Below, in pieces: positions 912-37,248 of a DNA stretch of 64,000 nt. The DNA is taken from positions 1 through 64,000 of the forward strand of contig JBCDCH010000004.1 in NCBI GenBank assembly GCA_039182125.1, in the 5' to 3' direction. Position numbers and translations under genes: made by a program. The notes beneath the pieces are model-generated. The model was not told the origin of the DNA. It ran no database searches and saw nothing but the letters and a program-made list of their open reading frames with translations. Position 1 is the first letter of the stretch; every line of letters begins with the position of its first letter. This stretch comes from Planctomycetota bacterium. Its GTDB lineage: Bacteria > Planctomycetota > Phycisphaerae > Tepidisphaerales > Tepidisphaeraceae.

Positions 912-1499
912 TTAGCCGTCCGGATCGTCGAGCAACTGTTGCAACCGCTCCCCAAGCACCGGCGGCAACCTTGCGGGCCAAGTGTCATCGAGCAGGCCGA
1001 CGTCGATCATGTCGATTAGATGAACTTGGTCCTTGCGACGGAATGCCGTGAGCTTGATCGTGACGAGGGCGTGTAGCGAGATCACACGGTAGGTGTCTGC
1101 GAACTCCGACTCGTCGACGTCCGGTGTGGTGGCTAGCTCGCCTTCACGCACTAACTCGCAGGCGAAGACCACATAAACGCCATCGCGTGCTTTGGCATCG
1201 GGGCCATCGAGAAACACATCGACACCCGCCGCTCGACGGTGGACGAAACCCGCAGATTCCATCGCCGTGATCGCCAAAGGCAGGTCGTCACGTCGAAGCA
1301 GAATGTCCACATCACGCGTGTTGCGGACCGCCGCCTCATCGACCCGCGCCACCCACGCCGCCACGGCGTTGCCGCCCACCACCGCATACGGCACCCTCGC
1401 CGACTCCAACGCCGCCGTCGCCCGATACAACCGCTGTTTGACCTTTTCCACGGCACGCACCGCCCTGTCGAATGAGAATGGAAGAAGCTCAATCGCCAC
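912..1499 (-). CDS. Nucleotidyltransferase-fold protein (AbiEii/MNT-like)
   Basis: A 195-residue protein starting at GTG 1499. Near residue 41 it has VVGGNAVAAW and about 18 residues later TRDVDILLRR. This GG...DxD layout is the metal- and nucleotide-binding signature of DNA polymerase beta-like nucleotidyltransferases. Later FRRKDQVHLIDMI resembles the Kx(R/K)xKD-hxDh segment typical of AbiEii/DUF1814-type and related proteins. Many relatives are toxins or orphan transferases; no antitoxin-like partner is visible next to this one. It follows gltD on the same strand, separated by an inverted-repeat element. The substrate is unknown. Confidence 0.7.
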   Translation of the reverse strand: MAIELLPFSFDRAVRAVEKVKQRLYRATAALESARVPYAVVGGNAVAAWVARVDEAAVRNTRDVDILLRRDDLPLAITAMESAGFVHRRAAGVDVFLDGPDAKARDGVYVVFACELVREGELATTPDVDESEFADTYRVISLHALVTIKLTAFRRKDQVHLIDMIDVGLLDDTWPARLPPVLGERLQQLLDDPDG

Positions 1500-1524
1500 G
1501 CTTGAAGTGTATCACACCCCGCAA

Positions 1525-1633
1525 GCCGTTGGCTCCCGACTATTGGGGCAGGTTGCTTAGACAGACATAGGGAGATCTGCCCTCGGGTCCGGCTGCCGGA
1601 GGGAAGTTGCCCCAGTAGCCGGGAGCCAACGGC
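1525..1633. repeat. 109-bp element with 26-bp terminal inverted repeats
   Basis: The left arm 1525-1550 (GCCGTTGGCTCCCGACTATT...) and right arm 1608-1633 match as inverted copies at 24 of 26 positions, with a 57-nt interior and no ORF. Single arms of the same sequence recur near 43091 and 56743, and a diverged copy near 34069. It lies between gltD and the nucleotidyltransferase gene. It looks like a MITE- or REP-type element; no transposase was seen. Confidence 0.75.
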
Positions 1634-1640
1634 CCGCGGG

Positions 1641-3113
1641 TCAAAGCTCCACCGGCAGTTCCGGCAGGTCGCTGTAGCCCATCAGGTACTTGTCGATGCA
1701 ACGCGCCGCCTGGCGACCTTCGCTGATGGCCCAGACAACCAGGCTTTGGCCGCGGCGACTGTCGCCTGCCGCGAAAACGCCTTCGACGTTGGTCATGTAG
1801 TCTTCGCCGACCTTGATCGCGTCGCGTTTGGTGAGGTTGAGGTTCAGGTCCTCGATCGGGCCGTAGGTTTCCGGGCCGCTGAAGCCGATGGCGAGCAGGC
1901 ACAGGTCGCACGGCAGGTCCATCTCGCTGCCTTCGAGCTCGGTGATGTGACGCTTTCCGGTTTCGTCCTTGTAGCTCTCGATCTTCACTGCGCGGAGTTG
2001 GCGGACGTGGCCGGCGTCGTCGCCGATGAACTCCTTGGTGAGGATCGCGTAGTTCCGCAGGTCGGCGTACTTCTGCTCGCCCTCTTCATGGGCGGCACTG
2101 GTACGCAGGACCATCGGCCACTGCGGCCAAGTCTTCTCCGGGCTCCGCTCACTGGGCGGCATCGCGTTGATGTCGAACTGCTTGATGCTCGCAGCCCCCT
2201 GACGCAGGGCGGTGCCGAGGCAGTCGGCGGCGGTGTCACCGCCGCCGATGATGATGACGTGCTTGTCCTTCGCGTCGATGGCCTGCTCGGCAAAAATCTG
2301 GTCGCCGTGGTTGAGCTTGGTCTGCTGCGGAAGATACGTCATCGCGTAGTGGATGCCGGTGAGATCGCGACCGGGGGTGTCGGCGTCGCGGGCCTTGGTC
2401 GCGCCGGTGCAGAGGAGGATCGCGTCGAAGTCGTGGCGGAGTTGCTCAGTGGTGACATCGACGCCGACGTTGACGCCGCAGCGGATTTCGATGCCCTCGT
2501 CTTCCAACAGCTTGCACCGCCGAGCGACGGTGGACTTGTCCATCTTGAAGTCGGGGATGCCGTAGACGAGCAGGCCGCCGGGGCGGTCGTCGCGCTCGAA
2601 GACGACGACGTTGTGGCCGGCGCGGTTGAGCTGTTGGGCGGCGGCGAGACCGGCCGGACCTGAGCCGACGACTGCGATCTTCTTGCCCGTCCGCTTCTCC
2701 GGCGGCTGCGGCTTGATCCACCCCTCGGCCCAGCCCTTATCCGCAATCGCCTGCTCGATCGTCTTGATCGTGACCGGCTGGTCGTTGATCGAAAGCACGC
2801 AGGCTTCCTCACACGGCGCCGGGCAAATGCGACCGGTGAACTCGGGGAAGTTGTTGGTCCGCTCCAAAGCCTGCAGCGCTTCGTACCACCGGTCGCGGTA
2901 GATCAGGTCGTTCCAGTCGGGGATCTGGTTGCCCAGCGGGCAGCCGTCGTTGCAGAACGGCACGCCGCAGTCCATGCAGCGGGCCCCCTGCTGGCGCAAC
3001 TCGCCGGGTTCCATGGGGACGTAGATTTCGTCCCAGTCGAGCACACGAAGCTCCACCGGCCGACGCCGGCGGGTCTGACGGGGAATCTCCTTGAATCCGG
3101 TCGGCTTACCCAT
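1641..3113 (-). CDS. gltD: Glutamate synthase (NADPH) small subunit
   Basis: A 490-residue flavoprotein. The start ATG at 3113 gives [10 protein letters not shown], the usual GltD N-terminus; the longer frame upstream is not conserved-looking. Cys46, Cys49, Cys54 and Cys58 ([14 protein letters not shown]) and Cys97, Cys101 and Cys105 ([10 protein letters not shown]) are the two iron-sulfur cysteine groups. A dinucleotide-binding motif GSGPAG lies near residue 150 (FAD) and [10 protein letters not shown] near 290 (NADPH). It passes electrons from NADPH to the GltB subunit, which makes glutamate from glutamine and 2-oxoglutarate in the cytoplasm. gltB is not in this window, so the large subunit is either unlinked or this is a GltD-like partner of another enzyme. 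Confidence 0.93.
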
Positions 3114-3224
3114 GAGGGGCGGATGATAGCGGGAAGCGTCGGGCCGGCGATGACATCGGCCGTCCGACAAGGTGACCCGACCGGCCATCGGCGGTTACCA
3201 TGGAAAATTTCTGCCGCAACTTCG

Positions 3225-4757
3225 ATGGTCGACGCGCCTACATTTAAACGATTGTTTACACGCATCCTCATCCTCTCTTTCGCCTTCACCGCCGGGTGCG
3301 TGGTCGGCCCCGATCCGCGTCGGCCGGACACGGTGCTGGAGCCGAGCGATCAGTTCATCTATGGCGACGGCTCGACCGAGCCGGCGGAGTTGGCCGGGTG
3401 GTGGCGCGAGTTCAGCGACCCGGTCACCGAAGAGCTCGTGCTCATCGCCCTCGAGAACAACACCGACCTCCGCGCCGCCGCAGCCAGCGTGCTCGAAGCT
3501 CAGGGCATCCTCGCCCAGGCGACCGGTGCACGGCTCCCGGTGGTCAACCTCGGCTTCGACTACAGCCGATCGAAAGGGTCGGTCAACTTCCCGACCGGGC
3601 GCGAGGCGTTCTTCACCACGACGTTCGACCTCGGCTTCGACGTCGCCTGGCAGGCCGATCTGTTTGGCCGGCTTCGGCGGCAAGAGCAGTCGGCGGCCAC
3701 GCTGGTACTCGCCGTCGAGGCCGACCGGATCGCGGCGATGCACTCGATCGTCGCCCAGGTCATCCGGGCACGTGTGACCGTCGCGACCCTCTCGCGACTC
3801 GTCGAACTGTCCGAGGCCAACATAGAAGCACTCGGCCGAACCCTCACGCTGGTCGAAGACCTGTACGAAGCCGGCACGGAAACCAGCTCGGCCCTCGACG
3901 TGCGCCTGGCCCGCCAGAACCTTGCCGCCGCTGAAGCCGAACTGCCGCCGCTGCAACAACAACTGACCCAGGCCGAGTTGGCATTGGACGTGCTGCTCGG
4001 CGTACGGCCCGGCACAGGCCCGAAACTGTCCACGCTCTCGACATTGCCGCCACTGGAGCCGCCGCCGACGGGGCTGCCGGCCCACTTGCTCGACCGCCGT
4101 CCCGACCTCGCCGCGAGCCAGTTCCGCGCGATGGCCGAGCAGGCCGACATCGGTGCGGAAATCGCCGACCTTTACCCCGACGTGACACTCTCCGGATCGG
4201 CCGGGCTGACCAGTTCCACGCTCAACGAACTGCTCAGCGACCTCTCGCAGGTGTACGCCGGTTTCGCGGGACTGGACCAACTGATCTTCGACGGCGGCGT
4301 GCAGCAGGGACAGGTCACCGTCGCCCGTGCCCAAGCCGAACGGGCCGCGGCCCAGTACGCAGGGGCGGTGCTGGTCGCGCTGCAGGAAGTCGAAGGCGCG
4401 CTGATCGCCGAGCGGTTCAATCGCCTTGCCCTGGCCGCGTCGACCCGAGCACTCGACGAAGCGCAGGCCGCCGAAGATTTGGCGCGTGACCGGTACGAGC
4501 GGGGCGTGGAAACACTGCTTAACGTTTTTGAAGCCGAAGGCCGCCGACGAACCGCCGAGGAACAAGTCGCGTCTTTGGAAGAAGCGGTGTGGGATAGCCG
4601 GATCGACCTGCACCTCGCGCTCGGCGGGGACTGGGGGATCGACGTCCCCGAGCCGACGCTCAACGGCGCCGCCGATGAGAAACCCGGGCCACGCGTTCGT
4701 CCCAAGTGGCACCTGAACCGTTTTGAACACGGGCCGTATGGATCGGTCCAGAACTGA
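3225..4757 (+). CDS. RND efflux outer-membrane lipoprotein (NodT/OprM family)
   Basis: About 510 residues, first gene of an efflux operon. A hydrophobic signal ends in the lipobox TAGC, with Cys25 if translation starts at ATG 3225; a TTG at 3252 would give a tighter signal (MFTRILILSFAFTAGC). The opening GPDPRRPD and GWWREFSDPVTEELVLIALE, and the paired TolC-like domains rich in LxxAxA heptads, are typical of the NodT family. The trimer would form the outer-membrane channel of a tripartite pump. Its stop overlaps the next gene's start (TGATG), indicating coupling to the membrane fusion protein. Confidence 0.9.
   Translation: MVDAPTFKRLFTRILILSFAFTAGCVVGPDPRRPDTVLEPSDQFIYGDGSTEPAELAGWWREFSDPVTEELVLIALENNTDLRAAAASVLEAQGILAQATGARLPVVNLGFDYSRSKGSVNFPTGREAFFTTTFDLGFDVAWQADLFGRLRRQEQSAATLVLAVEADRIAAMHSIVAQVIRARVTVATLSRLVELSEANIEALGRTLTLVEDLYEAGTETSSALDVRLARQNLAAAEAELPPLQQQLTQAELALDVLLGVRPGTGPKLSTLSTLPPLEPPPTGLPAHLLDRRPDLAASQFRAMAEQADIGAEIADLYPDVTLSGSAGLTSSTLNELLSDLSQVYAGFAGLDQLIFDGGVQQGQVTVARAQAERAAAQYAGAVLVALQEVEGALIAERFNRLALAASTRALDEAQAAEDLARDRYERGVETLLNVFEAEGRRRTAEEQVASLEEAVWDSRIDLHLALGGDWGIDVPEPTLNGAADEKPGPRVRPKWHLNRFEHGPYGSVQN
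3245..3258. promoter_or_regulatory. AT-rich palindrome at the start of the efflux operon
   Basis: TAAACGATTGTTTA has 5-bp inverted arms in an unusually AT-rich patch of GC-rich DNA. It lies inside the first codons if the ATG at 3225 is used, or just before and over a TTG start at 3252. Regulators of efflux operons often bind such sites, but no repressor gene is adjacent, so this is only a candidate operator. Confidence 0.25.
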
Positions 4758-6271
4758 TGGACAAGCCGATGCTGCAGAACGCCGAACCAACCGCCACGGC
4801 AGAGCCGACCGATGCCGAACCGATCGACGCGGAACTCGTTGAAGCCGTCGGGGCTGATGAATCCGACACGCCCGCCGAGGCCGCTGACAACCCGTCGGTG
4901 GACGAGCCGATCGAGGGCAACGACACGGCGAAGTTGCTCGTCCAGTTCGTTCTGGCGATCGTCATTCTCGCGGCCGGCGTCGGCCTGACGATATTGCTCT
5001 TCTCCCAGAAAACCGCGCCGGCCACGACCAACGGCCTCGACGCGTCTCCGCTGGTCGACACCGTCACGGCACGCGTCGGCAACCTGCCCGTCGCCATCCG
5101 CGGCTTCGGTACGGTGCGTGCCCGCGATCGGGTTCAAATCGTCCCCCAGGTTGGCGGACGTGTCATCTCCACCCACCCGAACTTTGCCGAGGGCGCGACG
5201 CTCAACGGCGGCGAAGTGATCGCCACGCTCGACCCGGCAGACGCCGAACTTGCCATCGCGCGGGCCAACTCCGAGATCGACCGGCTCTCGGCCACGATCA
5301 AACGGCTCGACGCCAGCCGCAAGCGGGCCGAGTCCGCCGTCGCCGCCGCCCAGACCCGCCTCGAAACCCAACGCGCCGAGGCCGAGGTTGCCAAAGCCCA
5401 GTACGAAAAACTCAACCCCGGCAAGGAGATCCCGCCGATGGTCGCGCGGGTGCCGCAGATGCGTGAGGCGGAAGCCAACCTCGCTTCCGCCGAAGCCGGT
5501 CTCGAGGATGTCGGCAGTGAACGTGAACAGATCGAGGCCCAACTCGCCGCGGCCAAGACCGAGCTGCGTCAGGCCCAACTCAACCTCGAACGCACGCAAA
5601 TCACACTCCCCGGCGAACCGACCGACCGTTACCGAGTACTCGAGAAGAACGCGGAGGTCGGCCAGTTCATGTCGCCGGGCGTGACGCTCTCGACACTTTA
5701 CAAAGCCTCGACGCTGGAGGTTCCCGTCCCATTACCGGCCAGGGAGTTGCAGTGGTTCACGGTCGGTCAAGCAACGGCCGAGGTGACCGCGCGTGACATC
5801 GACCGCACCTGGTCCGGCACGATCGTCCGCACCGACGGGCAGATCGACCCGCGGTCCCGGCTGGTCAACGTCGTGGTCGCGCTCGACCCGGCCGGACTCG
5901 ACGGCAAGCTCGTGCCGGGCATGTTCGTCGAGGCCATGATCACCGGCGAGAAAATCCCCAACGTCGCGGCGATCCCCCGGCTCGCCCTCCGGCAGGTCGA
6001 ACGCGTCGACGTCGCCAACGCAGGCGGCAACCAAGCCACCGGCCGCACCGGCGGCTTCGACAACGACGCCACCGCGCAACGCCTTTACGTCATTCGCGAC
6101 GACGTGCTCCGGTTCATCGACGTCGAAGTCGTCCGTCTAACCCGCGAACTTGCCTACGTTAGCGGCCTCGACGATGGCGAAATCATCGTCACCACGGACC
6201 TCGCGGTCGTCACCGATGGCATGATTGTCGACGTCGCCGACACGGACGAACCCAACGGAGGTGAGCAGTGA
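4757..6271 (+). CDS. RND efflux periplasmic adaptor (membrane fusion protein)
   Basis: A 504-residue HlyD/AcrA-type adaptor. It begins with an unusual acidic, proline-rich cytoplasmic tail of about 58 residues (EPTDAEPIDAELVEAVG), followed by one membrane helix (about 60-85). The lipoyl and barrel regions start at VRARDRVQIVPQVGGRV. A long alpha-hairpin covers about residues 170-280. A beta-barrel and membrane-proximal region follow, with PGMFVEAMITGE. It links the inner-membrane pump to the outer-membrane channel. It overlaps the genes on both sides (TGATG and GTGA), so the three subunits should be made in coupled amounts. Confidence 0.92.
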   Translation: MDKPMLQNAEPTATAEPTDAEPIDAELVEAVGADESDTPAEAADNPSVDEPIEGNDTAKLLVQFVLAIVILAAGVGLTILLFSQKTAPATTNGLDASPLVDTVTARVGNLPVAIRGFGTVRARDRVQIVPQVGGRVISTHPNFAEGATLNGGEVIATLDPADAELAIARANSEIDRLSATIKRLDASRKRAESAVAAAQTRLETQRAEAEVAKAQYEKLNPGKEIPPMVARVPQMREAEANLASAEAGLEDVGSEREQIEAQLAAAKTELRQAQLNLERTQITLPGEPTDRYRVLEKNAEVGQFMSPGVTLSTLYKASTLEVPVPLPARELQWFTVGQATAEVTARDIDRTWSGTIVRTDGQIDPRSRLVNVVVALDPAGLDGKLVPGMFVEAMITGEKIPNVAAIPRLALRQVERVDVANAGGNQATGRTGGFDNDATAQRLYVIRDDVLRFIDVEVVRLTRELAYVSGLDDGEIIVTTDLAVVTDGMIVDVADTDEPNGGEQ

Positions 6272-9200
6272 ACAACCCCGAACAAAAGCGTCCGCTACCC
6301 CGCGGGATGCTCTCCTGGTTCGCACGTAACCACGTCGCGGCGAACCTTCTGTTCTTCGTGCTGATTTTGGTCGGCATGATGAGCGTGCTCTCGACGAAGC
6401 TCGAGGTGTTCCCGGAGATCGACACGGGCCTGATCACGGTCGAAGTGCCCTACCCCGGTGCGACGCCGCAGGAGGTCGAGGAAGGCGTGCTGCTGCGGGT
6501 AGAGGAGGCCGTCGCCGAGGTCGAGGGCATCAAGGAAACCCGCGGCACCGCCGCCGAATCCGTCGGTATCGTCTCCCTCGAACTGGAAACCTGGGCTGAC
6601 GAAACGCAGGTCCGCGACGATGTGAAAAACGCCATCGATCGCATCGACACGTTCCCCGAGGACACCGAGGAGCCGGTCGTCTCCGACGTGACCCAACGGA
6701 TGGAAGTGTTGATCGTCGCGTTGCACGGCGAAGTTCCGCGCAAGTCGCTCAAGGAGTTGGGCGAGCGGATCAAGTCCGAGTTCATCGCGACCGGGATCAT
6801 CTCCAGCGTCGAGATCGGCGGTGTCCCCCCGTACGAAGTCGGCATCGAGATCGACGAGGCGACCCTCCGCGCCCACGGGCTGACGTTCGCCGATATCGCC
6901 GACGCGGTGCGGCGGGGAAGTCTGGACCTGCCGGCCGGCTCGGTCGAGACCGACGACGCCGAAGTCCTGATCCGCACGCTCAACCAGGCCAAGGACCGCG
7001 ACGCCTTCGAGCGAATCGTCGTCCGCCAACTAGACGACGGCACCGTGCTCACCGTCGGCGACCTGGCCTTTGTCCGCGACGAGTTCGAGGACAGCGACTA
7101 CGCCGTGCGCTACAAGGGCGACCCGGCGGTACTGCTGAGCGTCTACCGCGTCGGCGACGAAGGCGCACTCAACATCGCATCGACGGTGAAGAAGTACGTC
7201 GAGGAGAATGCCGACAACCTGCCGGCCGGCGTGTCTGCGTCGATCTACAACGATTTTTCGATCATCCTCACCGAACGCATCTCACTGATGCTCAAGAACG
7301 CCGGGCTGGGGCTCATCCTCGTGGTGATCTTCCTCGGGTTGTTCCTCGATCCGAAGCTCGCGTTCTGGTGTGCCGCGGGGCTGTTCATGTCGTTCGTCGC
7401 GGCGATCGCCGTTCTGCCGATCATGGACGTGTCGATCAACATGATCTCCCTGTTCGCGTTCATCCTCGTGCTGGGCATCGTGGTCGACGACGCGATCGTC
7501 GTCGGGGAGAACATTTACGAACACCTCGAACGTGGCGAGTCGGCAGCCCGGGCGGCGGTGCTCGGCGTGCGCGAGGTCGCGCTGCCGGTGACACTGACGA
7601 TCATCTCGACGGTGATCGCGTTCAGCCCGCTACTTTTCGGCGAAGGCGACATCGGGCAGATCCTGCGCGTGATTCCCGTCGTCGTGATCGCCGTGCTGGT
7701 CATCTCGCTGGTCGAAGCGCTGCTGATCCTGCCGGCACACCTCTCGGACGCGACGCCGCCGCACCTTCGCAAGCAAACTTGGTTCGTGCGTTTCCGCGGC
7801 AAGCTCGCCGACGGACTCGCATGGTTCACGAACGTCCCGTACAAGGCCGCGCTCCACACGGCGACCCGATGGCGGTACGTCACCCTCGCGGTGGCGGCGT
7901 TCGTGTTCATGGTCACCATGGGCTATGTCGCCGGCGGGTGGTTGCCGTGGAAGTTCTTCCCCGAGGTCGACGCCGACTTCACCCGCGCCTCACTGGAGAT
8001 GCCGCCCGGTACGACTGCGCAACGCACCGCCGAACTGCTCGACCGCGTAGAGGAAGCCGCCGAGAAGATTCCGACGATCGTCGGCTGGGAAGGCGAGGAG
8101 CCGCTGATCAAATCCATCCAGGTCACCGTCGGCGGCACGCCGATGGCCGCCGCGATGGACCAGGGCAACCTCGCGGCCGGCCTGCAAAACCCGGCGATCG
8201 GCGAGGTCATCGTTCAACTCATCGAACCCAGCAAGCGCGACATCTCCACGTCCGACATCACCCGCGCCTGGCGCGACGAGATCGGCACGCTGCCGGGCGC
8301 GCGGTCATTGAAGTTCGCCGACTCGCTCGTCTCGGCCGGTGACCCGATCAACGTCCAGCTCTCACCCGCCGACGGGTCCGACGAGGCGTTCGATCGGCTG
8401 CTCTCCGCAACCCAGCAACTCAAGCGGGAACTCAATCAGCTCGAAGGCGTTCGGTCCATCTCCGACAGCTTCCAGCAAGGTAAACCCCAGCTCGACATCA
8501 CCGGCCTGACGCCGACCGGCAAATCGCTTGGCCTGACCATCTCCGATGTCGCGGCCCAGGTGCGCGGCGCTTTTTTCGGTGCCGAAGCGCAGCGGTTCCA
8601 GCGTGAGCGCGACGAGGTTCGCGTCTACGTCCGCTACCCCAAGGACCAACGCCGAAGCCTTGCCGATATCGAGGAACTTTACATCCGCCTGCCCGACGGG
8701 ACGGCCGCGCCGCTCTCGACGGTTGCCGAATACGAACTCGGCGAAGGCTTCAGCCAGATCAGCCGCGTCGAACGTCAACGCATCGTCAATGTCACCGCCG
8801 ACGTCGACACCACGCTCGCCAACGCCGCGGAACTCAACACGCTGCTCCGCGAGGAAGTTCTCCCGCAGGTCGTCGCCGACAACCCCGGTACCCGCTGGAG
8901 CATGAAGGGCGAACAGGAAGAACAACGCGAGTCGATGAACTCGCTGCTACTCTCGCTGGGCGTTGCAATGGTCGGGATCTACGGGCTGCTCGCGATCCTG
9001 TTCCGCAGCTACATCCAGCCGGTGATCGTCATGTCGGCGATCCCGTTCGGTCTGGTCGGCGCGATCTGGGGGCACATCCTCTTCGACTTCTTCCGGCCGA
9101 TGCCGCTGAACTTCCTCTCGATGTTCGGCGTCGTCGCGCTCACCGGCGTCGTGGTCAACGACTCGCTCATCCTCATCGACCTGATCAACCGCAAACGAAT

Positions 9201-9525
9201 CCAGGGCGCGGACGCGGTGACCGCCACACTCGAAGGCGGCCTGCGTCGCTGCCGGCCGATCCTGCTCACGACCTTCACCACGTTCTTCGGCCTCGCGCCG
9301 ATGATCCTTGAAACCTCGCTGCAAGCGCAGTTCCTCATTCCGATGGCGCTCTCGCTCGGCTTCGGCGTTTTGGTCGCGACGTTCATCACGCTGCTCTTGG
9401 TGCCGGCGTTGTATCTGACGATCGAAGACATTCGCGAGCTACTCCGCCCCCTGCTGGGCAAGATGGTGCTCTACACGCCGCCGGAGATGGACGAAAAAGA
9501 AACCCGCGAGTTCGCCCCGGCGTAA
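6268..9525 (+). CDS. RND-family inner-membrane efflux pump
   Basis: A 1085-residue pump with the two-repeat RND plan: helix 1 (ARNHVAANLLFFVLIL), a large periplasmic loop, helices 2-6 around ILVLGIVVDDAIVVGENIYE, then helix 7, a second loop, and helices 8-12 with FGVVALTGVVVNDSLILID. The paired Asp residues in VVDDAIVV and the GVVVNDSLIL counterpart match the proton-relay segment of the family. It starts at a GTG overlapping the previous stop, with a strong ACGGAGGTGA ribosome site. The shape and dense VEVEYPGATPQEVEEGV-like opening fit heavy-metal- or multidrug-type pumps; the substrate cannot be told from sequence. Confidence 0.94.
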   Translation: MNNPEQKRPLPRGMLSWFARNHVAANLLFFVLILVGMMSVLSTKLEVFPEIDTGLITVEVPYPGATPQEVEEGVLLRVEEAVAEVEGIKETRGTAAESVGIVSLELETWADETQVRDDVKNAIDRIDTFPEDTEEPVVSDVTQRMEVLIVALHGEVPRKSLKELGERIKSEFIATGIISSVEIGGVPPYEVGIEIDEATLRAHGLTFADIADAVRRGSLDLPAGSVETDDAEVLIRTLNQAKDRDAFERIVVRQLDDGTVLTVGDLAFVRDEFEDSDYAVRYKGDPAVLLSVYRVGDEGALNIASTVKKYVEENADNLPAGVSASIYNDFSIILTERISLMLKNAGLGLILVVIFLGLFLDPKLAFWCAAGLFMSFVAAIAVLPIMDVSINMISLFAFILVLGIVVDDAIVVGENIYEHLERGESAARAAVLGVREVALPVTLTIISTVIAFSPLLFGEGDIGQILRVIPVVVIAVLVISLVEALLILPAHLSDATPPHLRKQTWFVRFRGKLADGLAWFTNVPYKAALHTATRWRYVTLAVAAFVFMVTMGYVAGGWLPWKFFPEVDADFTRASLEMPPGTTAQRTAELLDRVEEAAEKIPTIVGWEGEEPLIKSIQVTVGGTPMAAAMDQGNLAAGLQNPAIGEVIVQLIEPSKRDISTSDITRAWRDEIGTLPGARSLKFADSLVSAGDPINVQLSPADGSDEAFDRLLSATQQLKRELNQLEGVRSISDSFQQGKPQLDITGLTPTGKSLGLTISDVAAQVRGAFFGAEAQRFQRERDEVRVYVRYPKDQRRSLADIEELYIRLPDGTAAPLSTVAEYELGEGFSQISRVERQRIVNVTADVDTTLANAAELNTLLREEVLPQVVADNPGTRWSMKGEQEEQRESMNSLLLSLGVAMVGIYGLLAILFRSYIQPVIVMSAIPFGLVGAIWGHILFDFFRPMPLNFLSMFGVVALTGVVVNDSLILIDLINRKRIQGADAVTATLEGGLRRCRPILLTTFTTFFGLAPMILETSLQAQFLIPMALSLGFGVLVATFITLLLVPALYLTIEDIRELLRPLLGKMVLYTPPEMDEKETREFAPA

Positions 9526-9531
9526 AGGTGG

Positions 9532-10782
9532 CTAGTTGCCGAAATCAAACGTCATGCGGTAACCAGCCCGCCAGACCGGCACCTGCACGTCGCAGCGGTA
9601 GCCGACGAACCGGTCCGGATCGAAGCCACGCCGGGCCGAGAGCGAGCCGATCAGTTCGGGGTAGCGATCCCAAGCGTCGATCCCCGCACGGTTAAAGCCA
9701 ACACCCAAGTGCTGCAACTGCAGCGGATGGGTCATGCGCGTCTGCCAACGTCCGCCGACATTGCTCGCGAAGTCAGGACCCCACAGGTGCAGGTCCAGGT
9801 CCGGGATGCATTGCCGTGCCAGATCCCGATGAAGAAAGACGTCCAACAGCATGCGTCGGACCGGGAAGTTCACCATCGCCCACACCTCGCTCAACTTCGA
9901 AGGCGTGTGGGCCGGATGCGCCTCGTGGCCCGCCATGGCAAACATCACGTCCGCGGGCGCCATCGAGCCATGTGCCCCGCCGCTTGTCTCGACATTCTGC
10001 AAGAGAAACCGGTCAGGCTGACGGGCACGAACCAGCGGCAGCGGTTGGCTGCTGAACTCCGGTAACAACCCTGCGGGTAGGTCAGCCTCACCCGGCACCA
10101 ACGGCGCGAAGTCGGCTTCCTCGTCATCCGTCTTGAACACGTGGAACGACAACGGCACCGCGTCAGGCCGGGCGACATGGCCGAGTAGACCATGCGCGCG
10201 GGTTTCGACCAGCCGTTCCGGGCAGTCGGGGTCTGTCTCGAAGAAATGGGTCGCTAGCCAGAGTTGGGAGTGGCGCCCGGTCAATGCCGTCGCGGCGTCG
10301 GAGAGCGCTTGGCGCTGCTGGAGAAACCACGAGTCGTCCTGGACGGCCGGGTCATGGGCGTCGGCGAGAGCGATTCGCTTGAGCAGGCGTGAGCGATTGC
10401 CGGCAAGACGGCGGGTGGTCGCGTCGTAATCCGCCACGATCTCCGCAAGCTGCGCTGCGGCCGATCGCTGCTCGGCGTCGAAGCGACTGTCCGTGCGGAT
10501 TGCCTCGGTCAGCAGCCGCAAACCCTCCACACCGGGAATCTCTCCCACGAGGGCGAGGCCGGCAAACGGCTTGTTCACCGCGGAAACCGCACGCTGACAG
10601 GTCGTCCGCTCGGTATCCAAGTAGCGGGCCAAGCCGCTGGCCGTCTGAGCCTCGACCGGCATGACCGCGAGGAGCGACCGCAAAGCCGAGTGAAGGCCTT
10701 GAAGCACCCTATCCAGTGCGTTCTGCTCGTCGGTGCTCAGCGGTGCGTGGATCGGCGGGGTCTTGGATTCGGCGGTGGCCAT
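9532..10782 (-). CDS. Hypothetical protein, no family recognised
   Basis: About 416 residues from ATG 10782, or 451 from an upstream start at 10887. I do not recognise a family. The first 100 residues read as helices with an HTH-like stretch (MPVEAQTASGLARYLDTERT, then CQRAVSAV), so a DNA-binding domain is possible. The rest is mixed, with HLWGPDF and GGRWQTRMTHPLQLQHLGVG near the end. No signal peptide or membrane helix is visible. It runs convergently into the RND pump with only 6 nt between stops. Its start faces the divergent PEP-CTERM gene at 10952. Confidence 0.65.
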   Translation of the reverse strand: MATAESKTPPIHAPLSTDEQNALDRVLQGLHSALRSLLAVMPVEAQTASGLARYLDTERTTCQRAVSAVNKPFAGLALVGEIPGVEGLRLLTEAIRTDSRFDAEQRSAAAQLAEIVADYDATTRRLAGNRSRLLKRIALADAHDPAVQDDSWFLQQRQALSDAATALTGRHSQLWLATHFFETDPDCPERLVETRAHGLLGHVARPDAVPLSFHVFKTDDEEADFAPLVPGEADLPAGLLPEFSSQPLPLVRARQPDRFLLQNVETSGGAHGSMAPADVMFAMAGHEAHPAHTPSKLSEVWAMVNFPVRRMLLDVFLHRDLARQCIPDLDLHLWGPDFASNVGGRWQTRMTHPLQLQHLGVGFNRAGIDAWDRYPELIGSLSARRGFDPDRFVGYRCDVQVPVWRAGYRMTFDFGN

Positions 10783-10880
10783 GATCGGCCCTGAAGGTCG
10801 CCGAAGTCGCCGCCGATTGCCACGTTCGGCCCGGTTGCGGACGTCGGCGTGGGCGTTGCCGCGGGGGCTGGAAGAAGGTG

Positions 10881-10922
10881 TTGACACGACCGCAGCATAT
10901 GCTTAGGTTGTGCTCAGCACAA
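10881..10922 (+). promoter_or_regulatory. Candidate promoter with overlapping palindromic operator
   Basis: TTGACA at 10881-10886 is a consensus -35 box. At 17-nt spacing the hexamer 10904-10909 (TAGGTT) is a weak -10. A perfect 15-bp palindrome TTGTGCTCAGCACAA at 10908-10922 covers the expected start point, 29 nt before the PEP-CTERM gene's ATG. A repressor site is the simplest reading, but it is not proven; the weak -10 is the main doubt. Confidence 0.4.
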
Positions 10923-10951
10923 TCTCATTCCTTTTCAGCACAAGGCCTCCA

Positions 10952-11653
10952 ATGCACCCGATCAACTCAAAACTCGCCATCTTCGCCGGCCTGTCCCTCT
11001 CGCTCATCGCCGTCCCGGCCACGCTCGGCCAAGTCACCACCTTCGACGACGGCACCGACGGCTGGAGCGTCAGCGGCCGCAACAACGTCAGCCTCACTGG
11101 CGGCAACCCCGGCGCGAACCTCGATGTCGAGGTCAACGATGTCTTCGGCGCGACCATACGCAACGACGACGGCCTGCTCCCGGACTTCAGCGGGCCGCTC
11201 ACGCTCACCGTCGACATCAACGTCGACTCCATCGACTTTTTCGGCACACCGGTCGCACGCGACCTGGTGGTCGACATCCGTGATTTCAGCGACGAAGGCT
11301 TCGCCAGCGTCTTCTACAACCTGGGCCTGCTGCAGGCCGCGGGCCAGGGCTGGCAGACTTACGCGATCACGATCGACGATCCGACGGCGACCGAGCTGCC
11401 GCGCGGATGGGCGGGCGCGGGTGCCGAGGATCCGGACACGTTCGAGCCGCTGTTGCCCGAAGGGCGGACGTTCGCGGACGTGCTGGCCGGGGCGGACGAG
11501 GTCGTGTTCACGACCTTCGTGCCCGGGTTCTTGTACGGCTTCACAAACTTCGACCTGCAAGTCGACAACGTCGGCTTCGTCGCGATCCCGGAGCCGACGT
11601 CGCTGAGTCTGCTTGCCTTGGGTGGCCTCGCCCTGCGTCGGCGGCGGCGGTAA
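10952..11653 (+). CDS. PEP-CTERM secreted protein
   Basis: A 233-residue exported protein. The signal peptide is MHPINSKLAIFAGLSLSLIA, cleaved near TLGQ. The body is beta-rich: FDDGTDGWSVSGRNN near the start resembles jelly-roll/carbohydrate-binding-like 'DGT-GW' modules, and no catalytic motif is visible. The C-terminus is IPEPTSLSLLALGGLALRRRRR, the PEP motif, helix and arginine tail recognised by exosortase. An upstream ATG at 10910 is in frame but overlaps the candidate operator, and it would put STRPP ahead of the signal. The protein is probably surface- or matrix-associated. Confidence 0.85.
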   Translation: MHPINSKLAIFAGLSLSLIAVPATLGQVTTFDDGTDGWSVSGRNNVSLTGGNPGANLDVEVNDVFGATIRNDDGLLPDFSGPLTLTVDINVDSIDFFGTPVARDLVVDIRDFSDEGFASVFYNLGLLQAAGQGWQTYAITIDDPTATELPRGWAGAGAEDPDTFEPLLPEGRTFADVLAGADEVVFTTFVPGFLYGFTNFDLQVDNVGFVAIPEPTSLSLLALGGLALRRRRR

Positions 11654-33734: not shown

Positions 33735-34053
33735 GTCGGCAGCGTATGCGATCGGCCCCTACCGTCCATCCTTGAAATTCGGCAAGGTCAAACGTGAACA
33801 CGGCCGCGTCCGCGGCCTCGACGAGGTCTGCGACCGGATCGTGCGCGACTGCCCCCACGTCGACCGCATCGTCCCCGGCCGCATCTCCCGCAAACGCGGC
33901 GGCGGCCCGGCGAAGTTCAAAGTCCAATACCCCACCGACGCCGGCCTCAAGTGCCAATACAGCATCGAACGGAGCGTGCAGGAGGTGTTCCTGATCTGCA
34001 ACGACGAGCAAGCGGCCCAGGCGTGGTTGACGGAGAACGGCATCGCGACGTAG
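33733..34053 (+). CDS. DUF2103-like small protein
   Basis: 106 residues. From residue 17: KVKREHGRVRGLDEVCDRIV, then DRIVPGRISRKRGGGPAKFK and QYPTDAGLKCQYSIERSVQE. This Arg-rich layout resembles DUF2103, a small family of unknown function, possibly RNA- or metal-binding; the match is from memory. The ATG at 33733 overlaps the peroxiredoxin ATG, so a TTG at 33772 just before the conserved part is a plausible alternative. There is no signal peptide. Confidence 0.65.
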   Translation: MSAAYAIGPYRPSLKFGKVKREHGRVRGLDEVCDRIVRDCPHVDRIVPGRISRKRGGGPAKFKVQYPTDAGLKCQYSIERSVQEVFLICNDEQAAQAWLTENGIAT

Positions 34054-34068
34054 GGCACGCAACCCAAC

Positions 34069-34096
34069 AGCTACGGGCCAATGGCCTGCGGGTCTG
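34069..34096. repeat. Diverged copy of the GAGCCGTTGGCTC-type repeat
   Basis: AGCTACGGGCCAATGGCCTG followed by CGGGTC resembles the right arm at 1616-1641 with several substitutions. It lies in the spacer before the restriction island. Confidence 0.4.
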
Positions 34097-34183
34097 GCGT
34101 GTCCACCCCATGCGGCGAGCACACCGTCGATGTCGCCGCGCGAACTCGCGTCCCGGGCCACCCGTTACCCGAGACAGGTTATT

Positions 34184-34210
34184 TTGACGGTTGGCCTGCC
34201 GAGATATGAT
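34184..34210 (+). promoter_or_regulatory. Candidate leaderless promoter of the methyltransferase gene
   Basis: TTGACG at 34184-34189 and TATGAT at 34205-34210 are close to the -35 and -10 boxes, with 15-nt spacing. The ATG at 34217 lies 6 nt after the -10, about where transcription should start, so the mRNA would have no leader. The short spacing is the main weakness. Confidence 0.4.
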
Positions 34211-34216
34211 CTTGGC

Positions 34217-35473
34217 ATGTCAGACGGGAAGGCACCAACTTGCATCGAGCTTTTTGCAGGAGCGGGCGGCCTCGCGTTGGGAATGGCCTGCTCGGGCTTC
34301 GAGCATCTGCTCGTTCAGGATTGGAACGCCGATGCGTGCCGGACACTGCGGCACAACCGAGGCGAAAACACGGCGAAGCCTTGGAACATTCACGAATCGG
34401 ACGTTCGGAGCGAGCGTTACGACGCGTTGCGTGGCAAAGTCGACGTCGTGGCTGGCGGACCACCTTGCCAGCCCTTCTCCATCGGAGGCAAGCATCGCGG
34501 CTTCAATGACCAACGAGACATGTTTCCCGAGGCGGTTCGCGCCGTGCGTGAGCTAAAGCCGAAGGCCTTTGTTTTCGAGAACGTCAAGGGCCTTCTCCGC
34601 GAGAACTTCGCCAACTACTTCCAGTACATCGTTCAACGGTTGCGGTTCCCCACGCAGGTCAGCCAAGGCGACGAGGAATGGCCTGACCATCTCACGCGAC
34701 TCGAAAAACTACATACCGGCGGCCGATTTCGCGGCCTGCGATACAACGTCGTGTGGCAACTGCTCAACGCTGCGGACTACGGCGTCCCGCAGCAACGGTG
34801 GCGCGTGGTCATCGTCGGTGTTCGCGCTGACCTCGGCATCCGTTTCAGCTTTCCGCATGCGACCCATGGCGCGGACGCGCTCCTGCACAGCCAGTGGGTG
34901 AGTGGCGAGTACTGGGATCGACACCGCGTGCCAATGCGCGAGCGGCCCGAGATACCCAAGCGACTACGGAAGCGTGTCGAATCCCTCAGGAGCCAGCTTC
35001 CGGAGTTCATGCCACGACCTTGGTCCACCGTGCGCGATGCCACGGCCGACTTGCCGGCAATCGGAGTGGGTGAGACATGCCTCGAAACACCCAACCATCA
35101 GCTCCGCGCCGGTGCGAAGTCTTACCCGGGGCATACCGGCAGCCCGCTGGATGAACCCGCGAAGGCGCTCAAAGCCGGCGACCATGGCGTGCCGGGCGGC
35201 GAGAACATGCTTCGGCTTCCCGATGGGTCCGTGCGTTACTTCTCCGTTAGGGAAGCCGCGCGCATTCAGACCTTCCCCGACGATTGGGTACTGCAAGGAT
35301 CATGGACGGAGTCCATGCGGCAATTGGGTAACGCGGTGCCAGTTCGTTTGGCGAGCGCTGTCGCCGACAGGCTTCACGGGGTGCTTGAACCATCGGGCAT
35401 AACGCAAGCCTTTCAGCGAAACATCGTGGCCGCTGAAGCAAAAGCCCGGCTGCATCAACAGCTGGAAACGTGA
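34217..35473 (+). CDS. DNA (cytosine-5) methyltransferase
   Basis: 418 residues. Motif I is CIELFAGAGGLALGM at about 9-23. Motif IV GGPPCQPFSIGG has catalytic Cys84, then FVFENVKGLL (motif VI), GVPQQRWRVVIVGV (motif VIII) and QLGNAVPV (motif X). It transfers a methyl group from SAM to C5 of cytosine. It converges with the Eco29kI-like restriction gene (8 nt between stops), and a Vsr gene lies next to that. Together these make a type II restriction-modification and repair cassette. The Eco29kI kinship suggests CCGCGG as the target. ATG 34217 follows a promoter closely. Confidence 0.95.
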   Translation: MSDGKAPTCIELFAGAGGLALGMACSGFEHLLVQDWNADACRTLRHNRGENTAKPWNIHESDVRSERYDALRGKVDVVAGGPPCQPFSIGGKHRGFNDQRDMFPEAVRAVRELKPKAFVFENVKGLLRENFANYFQYIVQRLRFPTQVSQGDEEWPDHLTRLEKLHTGGRFRGLRYNVVWQLLNAADYGVPQQRWRVVIVGVRADLGIRFSFPHATHGADALLHSQWVSGEYWDRHRVPMRERPEIPKRLRKRVESLRSQLPEFMPRPWSTVRDATADLPAIGVGETCLETPNHQLRAGAKSYPGHTGSPLDEPAKALKAGDHGVPGGENMLRLPDGSVRYFSVREAARIQTFPDDWVLQGSWTESMRQLGNAVPVRLASAVADRLHGVLEPSGITQAFQRNIVAAEAKARLHQQLET

Positions 35474-35481
35474 ATGCCGCA

Positions 35482-36183
35482 TCAACGCTCATGCCGTCCG
35501 ACGAAGCCCGGACGCAGATCATCGGTCAAGGACGAATAGCGCCCCACGAAGAACTCGTCGAGCATCTCTCGAACTCGCTTTAAAATGGCGGGTCGACGTT
35601 CCAGCGCTTCGGCGACCCTTGGCCCTTGCGTTTGCCGACCCGGATGAAGTGCATCCCAGTCGGAGAACGCCGAGCCTCGATTTCTGCCCGGCGCGTTCCC
35701 GCCGATGCCTTGTACCGCCACATTCCACACCGGGCGGAAGTTCGAGATGAGATAAGTCTCTGCCAGAACAGCCCAAGCATCCCGCATCGTCAAAAAGACG
35801 ACGTGAAAGTCGCGCGAATGCAGGTCGACCTTTTCGATCTTGCCTCGATATCCAGTGATTCGTGATCTCAGTCGATTGCTACTGACGGGTTCGACACCCT
35901 TGTTGCTCCGCGTGATACCCATTCCAACATAAATCGGGACCTTGAGTATCTCACTCTCGCTGAACCAGTTCTGCCGGAGTCTGGCGTAGGCATCGTGCTC
36001 ACCGTGGTAGTACAAGGCATAAACGCCACTGCTCGCTCCACCAACAAAACTCTCTAGCGGCTGGCGCGGCTGCCGGATGAACGCCGACGCAATCGCGTCG
36101 CCCAATCCGCTGTAGCTTAATGGGTCGAACTCGCGCTCGATCACTGACGACTCTTGGGGGCCGAACTCTTGTTCGTTACTCAC
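35482..36183 (-). CDS. Eco29kI-family GIY-YIG restriction endonuclease
   Basis: 233 residues from a GTG. The GIY-YIG signature: SGVYALYYHG (Tyr55), PIYVGMGI (Tyr85), RLRSRITGY (Arg104, Arg108), AETYLISNF (Glu142) and RPVWNVAV (Asn154), with the gap pattern of Eco29kI. In Eco29kI the residue four after the Arg is a His; here it is Arg108, which should be checked. Characterised relatives (Eco29kI, NgoMIII) cut CCGCGG; the specificity here is inferred. The gene is convergent with its methyltransferase and divergent from vsr. Confidence 0.88.
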   Translation of the reverse strand: MSNEQEFGPQESSVIEREFDPLSYSGLGDAIASAFIRQPRQPLESFVGGASSGVYALYYHGEHDAYARLRQNWFSESEILKVPIYVGMGITRSNKGVEPVSSNRLRSRITGYRGKIEKVDLHSRDFHVVFLTMRDAWAVLAETYLISNFRPVWNVAVQGIGGNAPGRNRGSAFSDWDALHPGRQTQGPRVAEALERRPAILKRVREMLDEFFVGRYSSLTDDLRPGFVGRHER

Positions 36184-36245
36184 CGTATTGCTCCAAAACG
36201 ATGGTGAGCGAGAGTTCGCTCATTGGCAAGCACCCGAGCGTTGGC

Positions 36246-36659
36246 ATGTCGCTGGACCCCTTATCCTCAGCACAACGTAGTGAGCGAATGTCGCTCGTAC
36301 GGGGCAAGGACACGAAACCGGAAATGGTCGTCCGCAGGCTCATCCATCGGATGGGCTTCCGCTACCGTCTCCACCGCCGCGATTTGCCGGGGAAACCTGA
36401 CCTGGTTTTTCCAAGCCGACGAAAAGTCGTTTTTGTTCACGGCTGCTTCTGGCATCGGCACGCTTGTCCGGCAGGGCGACGCACGCCGAAGTCACGCCGT
36501 GAGTTCTGGCTCAACAAGCTCGAATCCAACCGACGTCGGGACCAACGCAATCGAAGACGGCTCAACAGACTTGGCTGGTCGGCCATGGTCATCTGGGAAT
36601 GCCAGCTCCGCGACCTGGATCGTGTCAGGCGACGAGTTGCCAGCTTCCTGGATGGCTGA
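36246..36659 (+). CDS. vsr: Very-short-patch-repair endonuclease (Vsr)
   Basis: 137 residues from ATG 36246; ATG 36201 would add 15 more. Family text: RMSLVRGKDTKPEMVVRRLI, GFRYRLHRRDLPGKPDLVFP (catalytic Asp51), KVVFVHGCFWHRHACPAG with the His-Cys zinc site, WLNKLESNRRRDQRNRRRL and WSAMVIWECQL. It nicks next to T in T:G mismatches made by deamination of 5-methylcytosine, protecting sites modified by the neighbouring methyltransferase. It is divergent from the nuclease gene. Confidence 0.95.
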   Translation: MSLDPLSSAQRSERMSLVRGKDTKPEMVVRRLIHRMGFRYRLHRRDLPGKPDLVFPSRRKVVFVHGCFWHRHACPAGRRTPKSRREFWLNKLESNRRRDQRNRRRLNRLGWSAMVIWECQLRDLDRVRRRVASFLDG

Positions 36660-36717
36660 ACCCTTGCCCGACGCCACCGGCTTTGGCACGATGCCGGTTT
36701 CACACCAAGGAGACTCC

Positions 36718-37248
36718 ATGCGTTGCTACACCACCCTGCTTGCTTTGCCGTTGCTCTTGCTCGTCGCGTTCGTTGCCGCCGACGAGCCGATGGATTTCAG
36801 GGAGCTCAAGAAGATACTTCCCGCCGAGTTGGGCGGACTGGCGTTGGTGAACTCCGAGGGGCAGAAGATCAACGCCAACGGCCAGAAGTTCACTCAAGCG
36901 ATGGGCGAGTACGAGCAGGCCGACGGTGAGGCCGACGCGACGATGAACATCGTCGACTACTCCGCGATGCCGCAGATGGCGATGGCGATGACCGCGTGGC
37001 AGAACATGGAGTTCGAGCAGGAGTCCGACGACGGCTACCAGAAGAGCACCAAGGTCCGCGACTGCCCGGCGATGGTCTCCTGGGAAAACAGCGGCACCGG
37101 CTCGATCACGATGCTGGTGGCCGAGAAGTTCATCGTCGTCCTCGAGATCTCGCAAGTGACGCACGATCAGTTCGAGGCCGCGATCGACGGCCTGCCGATC
37201 GACGCACTCATGGGCGGCGCACCGGCGACGACCGCGCCGGCCGAATGA
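36718..37248 (+). CDS. Secreted protein, no family recognised
   Basis: 176 residues from ATG 36718, which follows a strong AAGGAGA ribosome site. Signal peptide [20 protein letters not shown], cleaved near AADEP. The mature part ([20 protein letters not shown]...) is Met-, Gln- and Asp-rich, with several [18 protein letters not shown] turns and no membrane helix or motif I recognise. It may be periplasmic. It lies between vsr and a phosphoesterase gene, with no evident link to either. Confidence 0.7.

What the first reader, a model, noticed from the sequence alone, without database searches (positions are those of the whole stretch)
34217..36659. Compact type II restriction-modification-Vsr island with probable CCGCGG specificity
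m5C methyltransferase (motifs I, IV, VI, VIII, X), an Eco29kI-like GIY-YIG nuclease and Vsr are packed into 2.4 kb, with convergent M and R genes and R divergent from vsr. Vsr next to an m5C system is expected for repair of deaminated sites. The position that is His in Eco29kI is Arg108 here, which may affect activity.
Basis: partly seen in the sequence, partly recalled or inferred. Interest (0 to 1): 0.55.

Follow-up and report, generated by a model that had tools for sequence, protein, structure and literature searches.

The report
Bacterial DNA-cutting defence with mismatch repair
A bacterium carries a three-gene defence set, probably imported, that should mark its own DNA, cut unmarked DNA and repair the mutations the mark causes; this is a known kind of system, with one unusual residue in the cutting enzyme.

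Summary
In detail: window 34217-36659 carries an m5C methyltransferase (M), a convergent Eco29kI-type GIY-YIG nuclease (R) and a divergent vsr (V), each over curated cut-offs. M and V are the only loci of their Pfam families found in the genome. GC3 is 0.65-0.70 against 0.81-0.91 in seven neighbouring genes, so the island looks foreign. CCGCGG is the best guess: M aligns end to end with M.Eco29kI (46%; 44% between motifs VIII and IX). Avoidance of CCGCGG in the genome does not confirm it.

One claim is wrong. Window Arg108 is the conserved catalytic Arg (Eco29kI Arg104). At the His108 position stands Tyr112, and the YVGK lysine is Met88. His stands there in all 145 other distinct near-complete rows. 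Window R is the most isolated of the 146 and departs most at conserved sites. Tyr occupies this place in Hpy188I and UvrC, so R may be active; decay is the main rival.

M, R and V together are common (41 of the 80 loci kept), and the M><R<>V order recurs in the same class. New member of a known kind, with an odd nuclease.

The parts
34217..35473 (+). M: m5C DNA methyltransferase, 418 aa, Eco29kI-methylase group
   Evidence: same-class clade of 13 rows, SH-aLRT 98
35474..35481 (.). 8-base gap between the convergent M and R stop codons
35482..36183 (-). R: Eco29kI-type GIY-YIG nuclease, 233 aa; Tyr55, Tyr85, Arg108, Glu142, Asn154 kept; Tyr112 in place of His, Met88 in place of Lys
   Evidence: AlphaFold model mean pLDDT 78.2, pTM 0.75; Eco29kI chains on top with Foldseek E 5.4e-12 and VIA Z about 20
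36184..36245 (.). intergenic stretch between the divergent R and vsr starts, presumed (not shown) to hold promoters
   Evidence: no sigma-70-like site reported in 34050-36750
36246..36659 (+). V: Vsr mismatch endonuclease, 137 aa (in-frame ATG also at 36120 and 36201)

Best explanation
A horizontally acquired type II restriction-modification set of the Eco29kI kind. M puts m5C into (most likely) CCGCGG, on the second C if it acts like M.Eco29kI. R, a GIY-YIG nuclease, cuts unmethylated CCGCGG in incoming DNA, with Tyr112 taking the place of the usual His that assists the general-base Tyr. V nicks T:G mismatches left when the m5C deaminates, so that the mark does not erode its own sites. Shown: gene content, order, families, predicted fold of R, codon-use contrast with the neighbours. 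Inferred: foreign origin, specificity, methylated base, activity of all three proteins, coupling of V to M.
For: Family and PDB matches. M aligns end to end with M.Eco29kI of pECO29: 46% overall, 44% between motifs VIII and IX against 50% in motifs I-VIII; most other m5C methylase matches in relatives cover only motif blocks. M.Eco29kI methylates the second C of CCGCGG (PMC3039593, passages). R keeps Tyr55, Tyr85, Arg108, Glu142 and Asn154 and its model matches Eco29kI. Tyr occupies the His place in the Hpy188I model (Y88, PMC2630997, passages); Thermotoga UvrC has Tyr43 four after Arg39 and a Y43F mutant was solved (title of 1yd3). V within 3 kb of R, with M: 41 of 80 genome loci. Only PF00145 and PF03852 loci found in the genome. 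GC3 contrast. G407, which holds a related M, shows CCGCGG at 0.40 of expectation in 69.6 kb (rank 9 of 48).
Against: His108 is present in 145 of 145 other distinct near-complete rows, and Eco29kI H108F shows 0% cleavage. R departs at 5 of 32 conserved positions (next worst 3, median 0) and has a very long branch (2.13 against a median of 0.27). In the own genome CCGCGG is not specially avoided and the deamination products are at expectation. R does not group with the R genes of the M clade (AU p 0.002; long branch in play), so R and M may have different histories. Eco29kI-type nucleases can work with m4C marks instead: R.DraR1 cuts m5C-marked CCGCGG and is blocked by m4C (PMC10855626, passages), and gonococcal NgoAIII CCGCGG was called 4mC by PacBio (PMC6789123, passages); whether window R is blocked by m5C is untested.
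Confidence: 0.6

Rival explanations
1. R is a dead or dying nuclease: M and V are kept as a methylation mark plus its repair, while R has lost the His-Tyr proton relay and drifts.
For: Tyr for His and Met for Lys at conserved positions, most deviations and lowest nearest-neighbour identity of 146 rows; long branch; H108F is inactive in Eco29kI; one clade member keeps M and V without any match to window R at E 1 or better (G421).
Against: The 233-codon frame is intact and five of the six active-site residues named for Eco29kI are kept; Trp176, Asp177, His180, Gly182 and Arg183 are also kept; Tyr stands at this place in other GIY-YIG enzymes.
Confidence: 0.25
2. R is active but on a different or narrower site than Eco29kI: it came from another lineage, replaced the resident nuclease, and is protected by M at an overlapping site.
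For: R tree not congruent with M tree; the nuclease slot beside this M clade holds several nuclease types.
Against: Long-branch artefact may explain the incongruence (treekit warnings); the Eco29kI-type enzymes whose specificity stands in the passages I read (Eco29kI, Cfr42I, R.DraR1) all cut CCGCGG.
Confidence: 0.12
3. M methylates another motif, so the set is not a CCGCGG system.
For: No avoidance signal specific to CCGCGG in the own genome; nothing I saw reports a measured specificity for this clade.
Against: Recognition region nearly as conserved with M.Eco29kI (44%) as motifs I-VIII (50%); partner nuclease is of the Eco29kI family; CCGCGG is at 0.40 of expectation in the sampled part of G407.
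Confidence: 0.15

Closest known systems
Eco29kI restriction-modification system (pECO29, CCGC^GG)
   Same: m5C methylase 46% identical; GIY-YIG nuclease with the same predicted fold and five of six named active-site residues.
   Different: Eco29kI is tandem R then M with overlapping stop and start (PMC3039593, passages), and the 3.9 kb plasmid record lists no vsr (the tblastn found none either); here M and R converge, V is present, and His is Tyr.
V-M-R(Eco29kI) loci, e.g. Paraburkholderia aromaticivorans plasmid
   Same: Same three protein kinds side by side; PMC10855626 (its section 2.1 read) says some predicted CCGCGG m5C systems carry V elements.
   Different: Among loci with all three, tandem V>M>R> is the commonest order (29 of 41).
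M><R<>V loci of the same class (G519, G428, G587, G697, G655, G475)
   Same: Same gene order and M 61-64% identical.
   Different: Their R keeps His and Lys and is 31-35% identical to window R.
R.Hpy188I and UvrC GIY-YIG domain
   Same: Tyr rather than His at the helix position four after the catalytic Arg (Hpy188I R84/Y88; UvrC R39/Y43).
   Different: Different families; UvrC aligns only over the core (Z 6.4).

Membership tests
Type II restriction-modification system | separate methylase and endonuclease genes side by side | tested here: met
Type II restriction-modification system | both enzymes act on the same site | not testable with these tools
   no methylome or cleavage data
Eco29kI endonuclease family (PF09517) | profile score over the curated cut-off | tested here: met
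   111.6 bits against 30.8
Eco29kI endonuclease family (PF09517) | Eco29kI fold (on a predicted model) | tested here: met
   11 chains of 3mx4, 3nic and 3mx1, Foldseek E 5.4e-12 to 2.3e-10; VIA Z 19.8-20.1, rmsd 9.0-10.2 over 197 residues
Eco29kI endonuclease family (PF09517) | active-site Tyr49, Tyr76, Arg104, Glu142, Asn154 | tested here: met
   window Tyr55, Tyr85, Arg108, Glu142, Asn154
Eco29kI endonuclease family (PF09517) | His108, present in 145 of 145 other distinct near-complete rows | tested here: not met
   Tyr112; hence family kin by profile and fold, but I do not claim a standard Eco29kI active site
CCGCGG specificity | methylation and cleavage at CCGCGG | not testable with these tools
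   homology only; avoidance test inconclusive
m5C methyltransferase (PF00145) | motifs I, IV with the PPC loop, VI, VIII, X in order | tested here: met
   211.2 bits against 22
Vsr endonuclease (TIGR00632) | profile cut-off and conservation of the catalytic Asp/His and Cys/His metal-site residues (roles recalled) | tested here: met
   147 bits against 97.85; residues read off the alignment with 1cw0

The most novel reading that the evidence does not exclude
An Eco29kI-family restriction enzyme that has switched from a Tyr-His to a Tyr-Tyr general-base pair (and lost the YVGK lysine) yet still cuts: a natural active-site conversion within one GIY-YIG restriction family, sitting in an M-V chassis whose nuclease slot is repeatedly refilled by different GIY-YIG nucleases.
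Probability: 0.3. Interest if true: 0.5.

Novelty: new member of a known kind. Interest (0 to 1): 0.3.

Why it matters
As a defence set it is ordinary. R offers a natural test of how GIY-YIG nucleases activate water: for ANKLE1, Eco29kI and SLX1 the active Tyr is said to lie beside a His that assists it (PMC10287932, passages), and here that His is Tyr in a family where it was otherwise invariant in the rows examined. Its M clade also shows one methylase type, mostly with V, beside several kinds of nuclease, a hint that the cutting half of such sets is exchanged more freely than the marking half.

Tried and rejected
Arg108 as the His equivalent: rejected by the family profile; the shifted UvrC match is the only support I saw. 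CCGCGG avoidance as proof of specificity: inconclusive (464 kb of 4.13 Mb of the own genome at O/E 0.69; G407 69.6 kb 0.40; G404 100 kb 0.87; G400 100 kb 1.05; G408 93 kb 0.66; G421 12 kb 0.58). Loss by deamination (CTGCGG/CCGCAG): at expectation, 0.99, in the own genome. Flanking direct repeats: the script looked for exact repeats of 9-20 bases shared by 33901-34260 and 36501-36800 and printed none. Empty insertion site: the downstream phosphoesterase gene matches in 21 of 41 genomes, the own one included, but none of the other four neighbour genes tested matched in the nine short relatives' loci read, so this is untested. Promoters: no sigma-70-like site reported in 34050-36750; terminator-like sites at chance level. 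R tree: window R placed beside long-branched actinobacterial rows, not trusted; a first AU test on 118 rows did not finish in time and was run on 36 rows instead, with a simpler model. Structure: the plant 2lwf row (Z 7.1) and UvrC rows (Z 6.1-6.4) lie below the Z 8 that the tool warns about; Hpy188I is not among the rows shown, which shows nothing.

In one search the His column read 164 His, 1 Tyr (window), 1 Cys (L216, cut short) and 5 gaps. The nuclease of G575 was not in that set, so its residues are unread. In G614 the profile match runs over one TGA, and in G407 the V match covers only 78 residues, so those two may be broken.

Full report
What is there. Window 34217-36659 holds three genes: M (34217-35473, +), R (35482-36183, -) and V (36246-36659, +). 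M scores 211.2 bits to PF00145 and 186.1 to TIGR00675, R 111.6 bits to PF09517 (Eco29kI endonuclease) and V 147 bits to TIGR00632, all over curated cut-offs. The closest solved structures by sequence are the HaeIII and HhaI methylases for M, Eco29kI for R and Vsr (1cw0) for V. M and R converge with 8 bases between their stops, and R and V diverge with 62 bases between their starts. In the genome M is the only PF00145 locus and V the only PF03852 locus found.

Origin. GC at third codon positions is 0.70, 0.65 and 0.65 for M, R and V, against 0.81-0.91 in seven neighbouring genes, which points to foreign origin. No flanking exact repeat was printed and the empty site could not be tested.

Methylase and specificity. 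M is 46% identical to M.Eco29kI of pECO29 and 48-54% to seven methylases paired with Eco29kI-type nucleases on plasmids. The stretch between motifs VIII and IX, which carries target recognition in m5C methylases (recalled), is 44% identical to M.Eco29kI, close to the 50% of motifs I-VIII, and 34 of its positions are invariant in nine proteins. In relatives' genomes most other methylase matches cover only motif blocks; one in G407 reaches over residues 175-397 at 30%. This argues for CCGCGG; M.Eco29kI methylates the second C there (PMC3039593, passages). Site avoidance is inconclusive: CCGCGG is at 0.69 of expectation in 464 kb of this genome (rank 23 of 56 palindromes) and at 0.66-1.05 in three relatives without a match to M (G404, G400, G408); it is at 0.40 in 69.6 kb of G407, which holds a related M (rank 9 of 48), which leans towards CCGCGG for that clade.

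Nuclease. A profile built from 162 other rows (not freed of duplicates) without the window aligns window Arg108 with the catalytic Arg and Tyr112 with the His, with top posterior marks; MAFFT alignments of 10 and of 171 rows agree. Window R thus keeps Tyr55, Tyr85, Arg108, Glu142 and Asn154 but has Tyr112 for His and Met88 for the YVGK lysine. Among 146 distinct near-complete rows, the His is found in 145 of the 145 others and the Lys in 139 of 145; window R departs at 5 of 32 positions conserved in at least 93%, the next worst at 3, the median at 0; its nearest relative in the set is 36% identical, the lowest of the 146. Its end branch is 2.13 against a median of 0.27 (1.9 against 0.44 in the smaller tree), while that of M is 0.6 against 0.27. 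The model (mean pLDDT 78.2, pTM 0.75) matches Eco29kI chains far above everything else shown.

Does R cut? In Eco29kI, H108F has no cleavage and weaker binding (PMC1952068, passages), and a Tyr assisted by His is proposed as the base in this fold (PMC10287932, passages). But the Hpy188I active-site model has Tyr88 four residues after Arg84 (PMC2630997, passages), and Thermotoga UvrC has Tyr43 four after Arg39, the subject of a solved Y43F mutant (title of 1yd3). Tyr therefore seems a workable residue in this fold. I put an active R at somewhat better than even, decay at about one in four.

Relatives and order. Of the 80 loci kept from the genome scan, 41 have M and, within 3 kb of R, V; 35 have M without V, and 4 neither; of the 41, 29 run V>M>R>, and none shows the window's order. 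In the same class, PF09517 matches in 24 of 397 genomes sampled, the window's own included. The window's M falls in a clade of 13 rows, all from this class (SH-aLRT 98). In this clade, 12 of 13, window included, have a PF09517-type nuclease gene convergent with M, and 9 of 13 have the full M><R<>V order (G519, G428, G587, G697, G655, G475, G407, G575 and the window). Caveats: the V match of G407 covers 78 residues only, that of G428 is cut by the contig end, and the nuclease of G575 is a weak match (33.8 bits). The exceptions: G498 and G614 show no V in the 9 and 11 kb held, G458 has V on the other side of M, and G421 has M and V but no match to window R. The nuclease differs: long Eco29kI-type in most, a shorter PF09517 protein in G407 (171 aa) and G614, both kinds at once in G428, the divergent Tyr form in the window. 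The long R of the eight clade members read and the short R of G407, G614 and G428 all have His and Lys. Holding window R together with the eight long R of this clade is rejected (AU p 0.002, 36 rows), with the caveat of a long branch. This suggests exchange of the nuclease beside a more stable M and V, which I state as inference.

Known or new. PMC10855626 (section 2.1 read) counts 310 predicted CCGCGG m5C systems in REBASE, some with V elements, so the combination is already recognised. The two gonococcal Vsr enzymes act on T:G in several contexts, unlike the E. coli one (PMC6116569, passages), so V need not be limited to this site. Against a simple m5C reading, R.DraR1, an Eco29kI relative, cuts m5C-marked sites and pairs with an m4C methylase (PMC10855626, passages), and gonococcal NgoAIII CCGCGG was called 4mC by PacBio (PMC6789123, passages); window M is m5C-type by its motifs. 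I file the set as a new member of a known kind, with an unusual nuclease active site.

Noticed in passing
L220 (G428:C685), long R 386-883, M 1038-2174, short R 2299-2745: One methylase gene flanked by two different GIY-YIG nucleases, a long Eco29kI-type one convergent with M and a short one upstream of M, with vsr (cut by the contig end) beyond the long one.
   Followed up: partly
L153 (G421:C36), 4981-11299 and 1375-4905: A methylase and vsr of the same clade beside SNF2-type helicase, Mrr-helicase and HSP90-like ATPase genes, without a match to window R.
   Followed up: partly
L152:5612-6127: A short (171 aa) PF09517 protein with little sequence between the GIY and YIG strands, in the same place and orientation as window R.
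   Followed up: partly
L234 (G381:C1), 5049-5453 and 5537-6190: Two Eco29kI-type nuclease genes facing each other beside one V-M pair.
   Followed up: no
window 34184-34219: TTGACG, 15 bases, TATGAT, ending six bases before the M start codon, which would suit a leaderless transcript; the spacing is outside the 16-18 of the scan.
   Followed up: no
L017 (Sphingomonas paucimobilis pKira_2), 1256-3727: Vsr, M and Eco29kI-type genes in which M and the nuclease are split over different reading frames.
   Followed up: no
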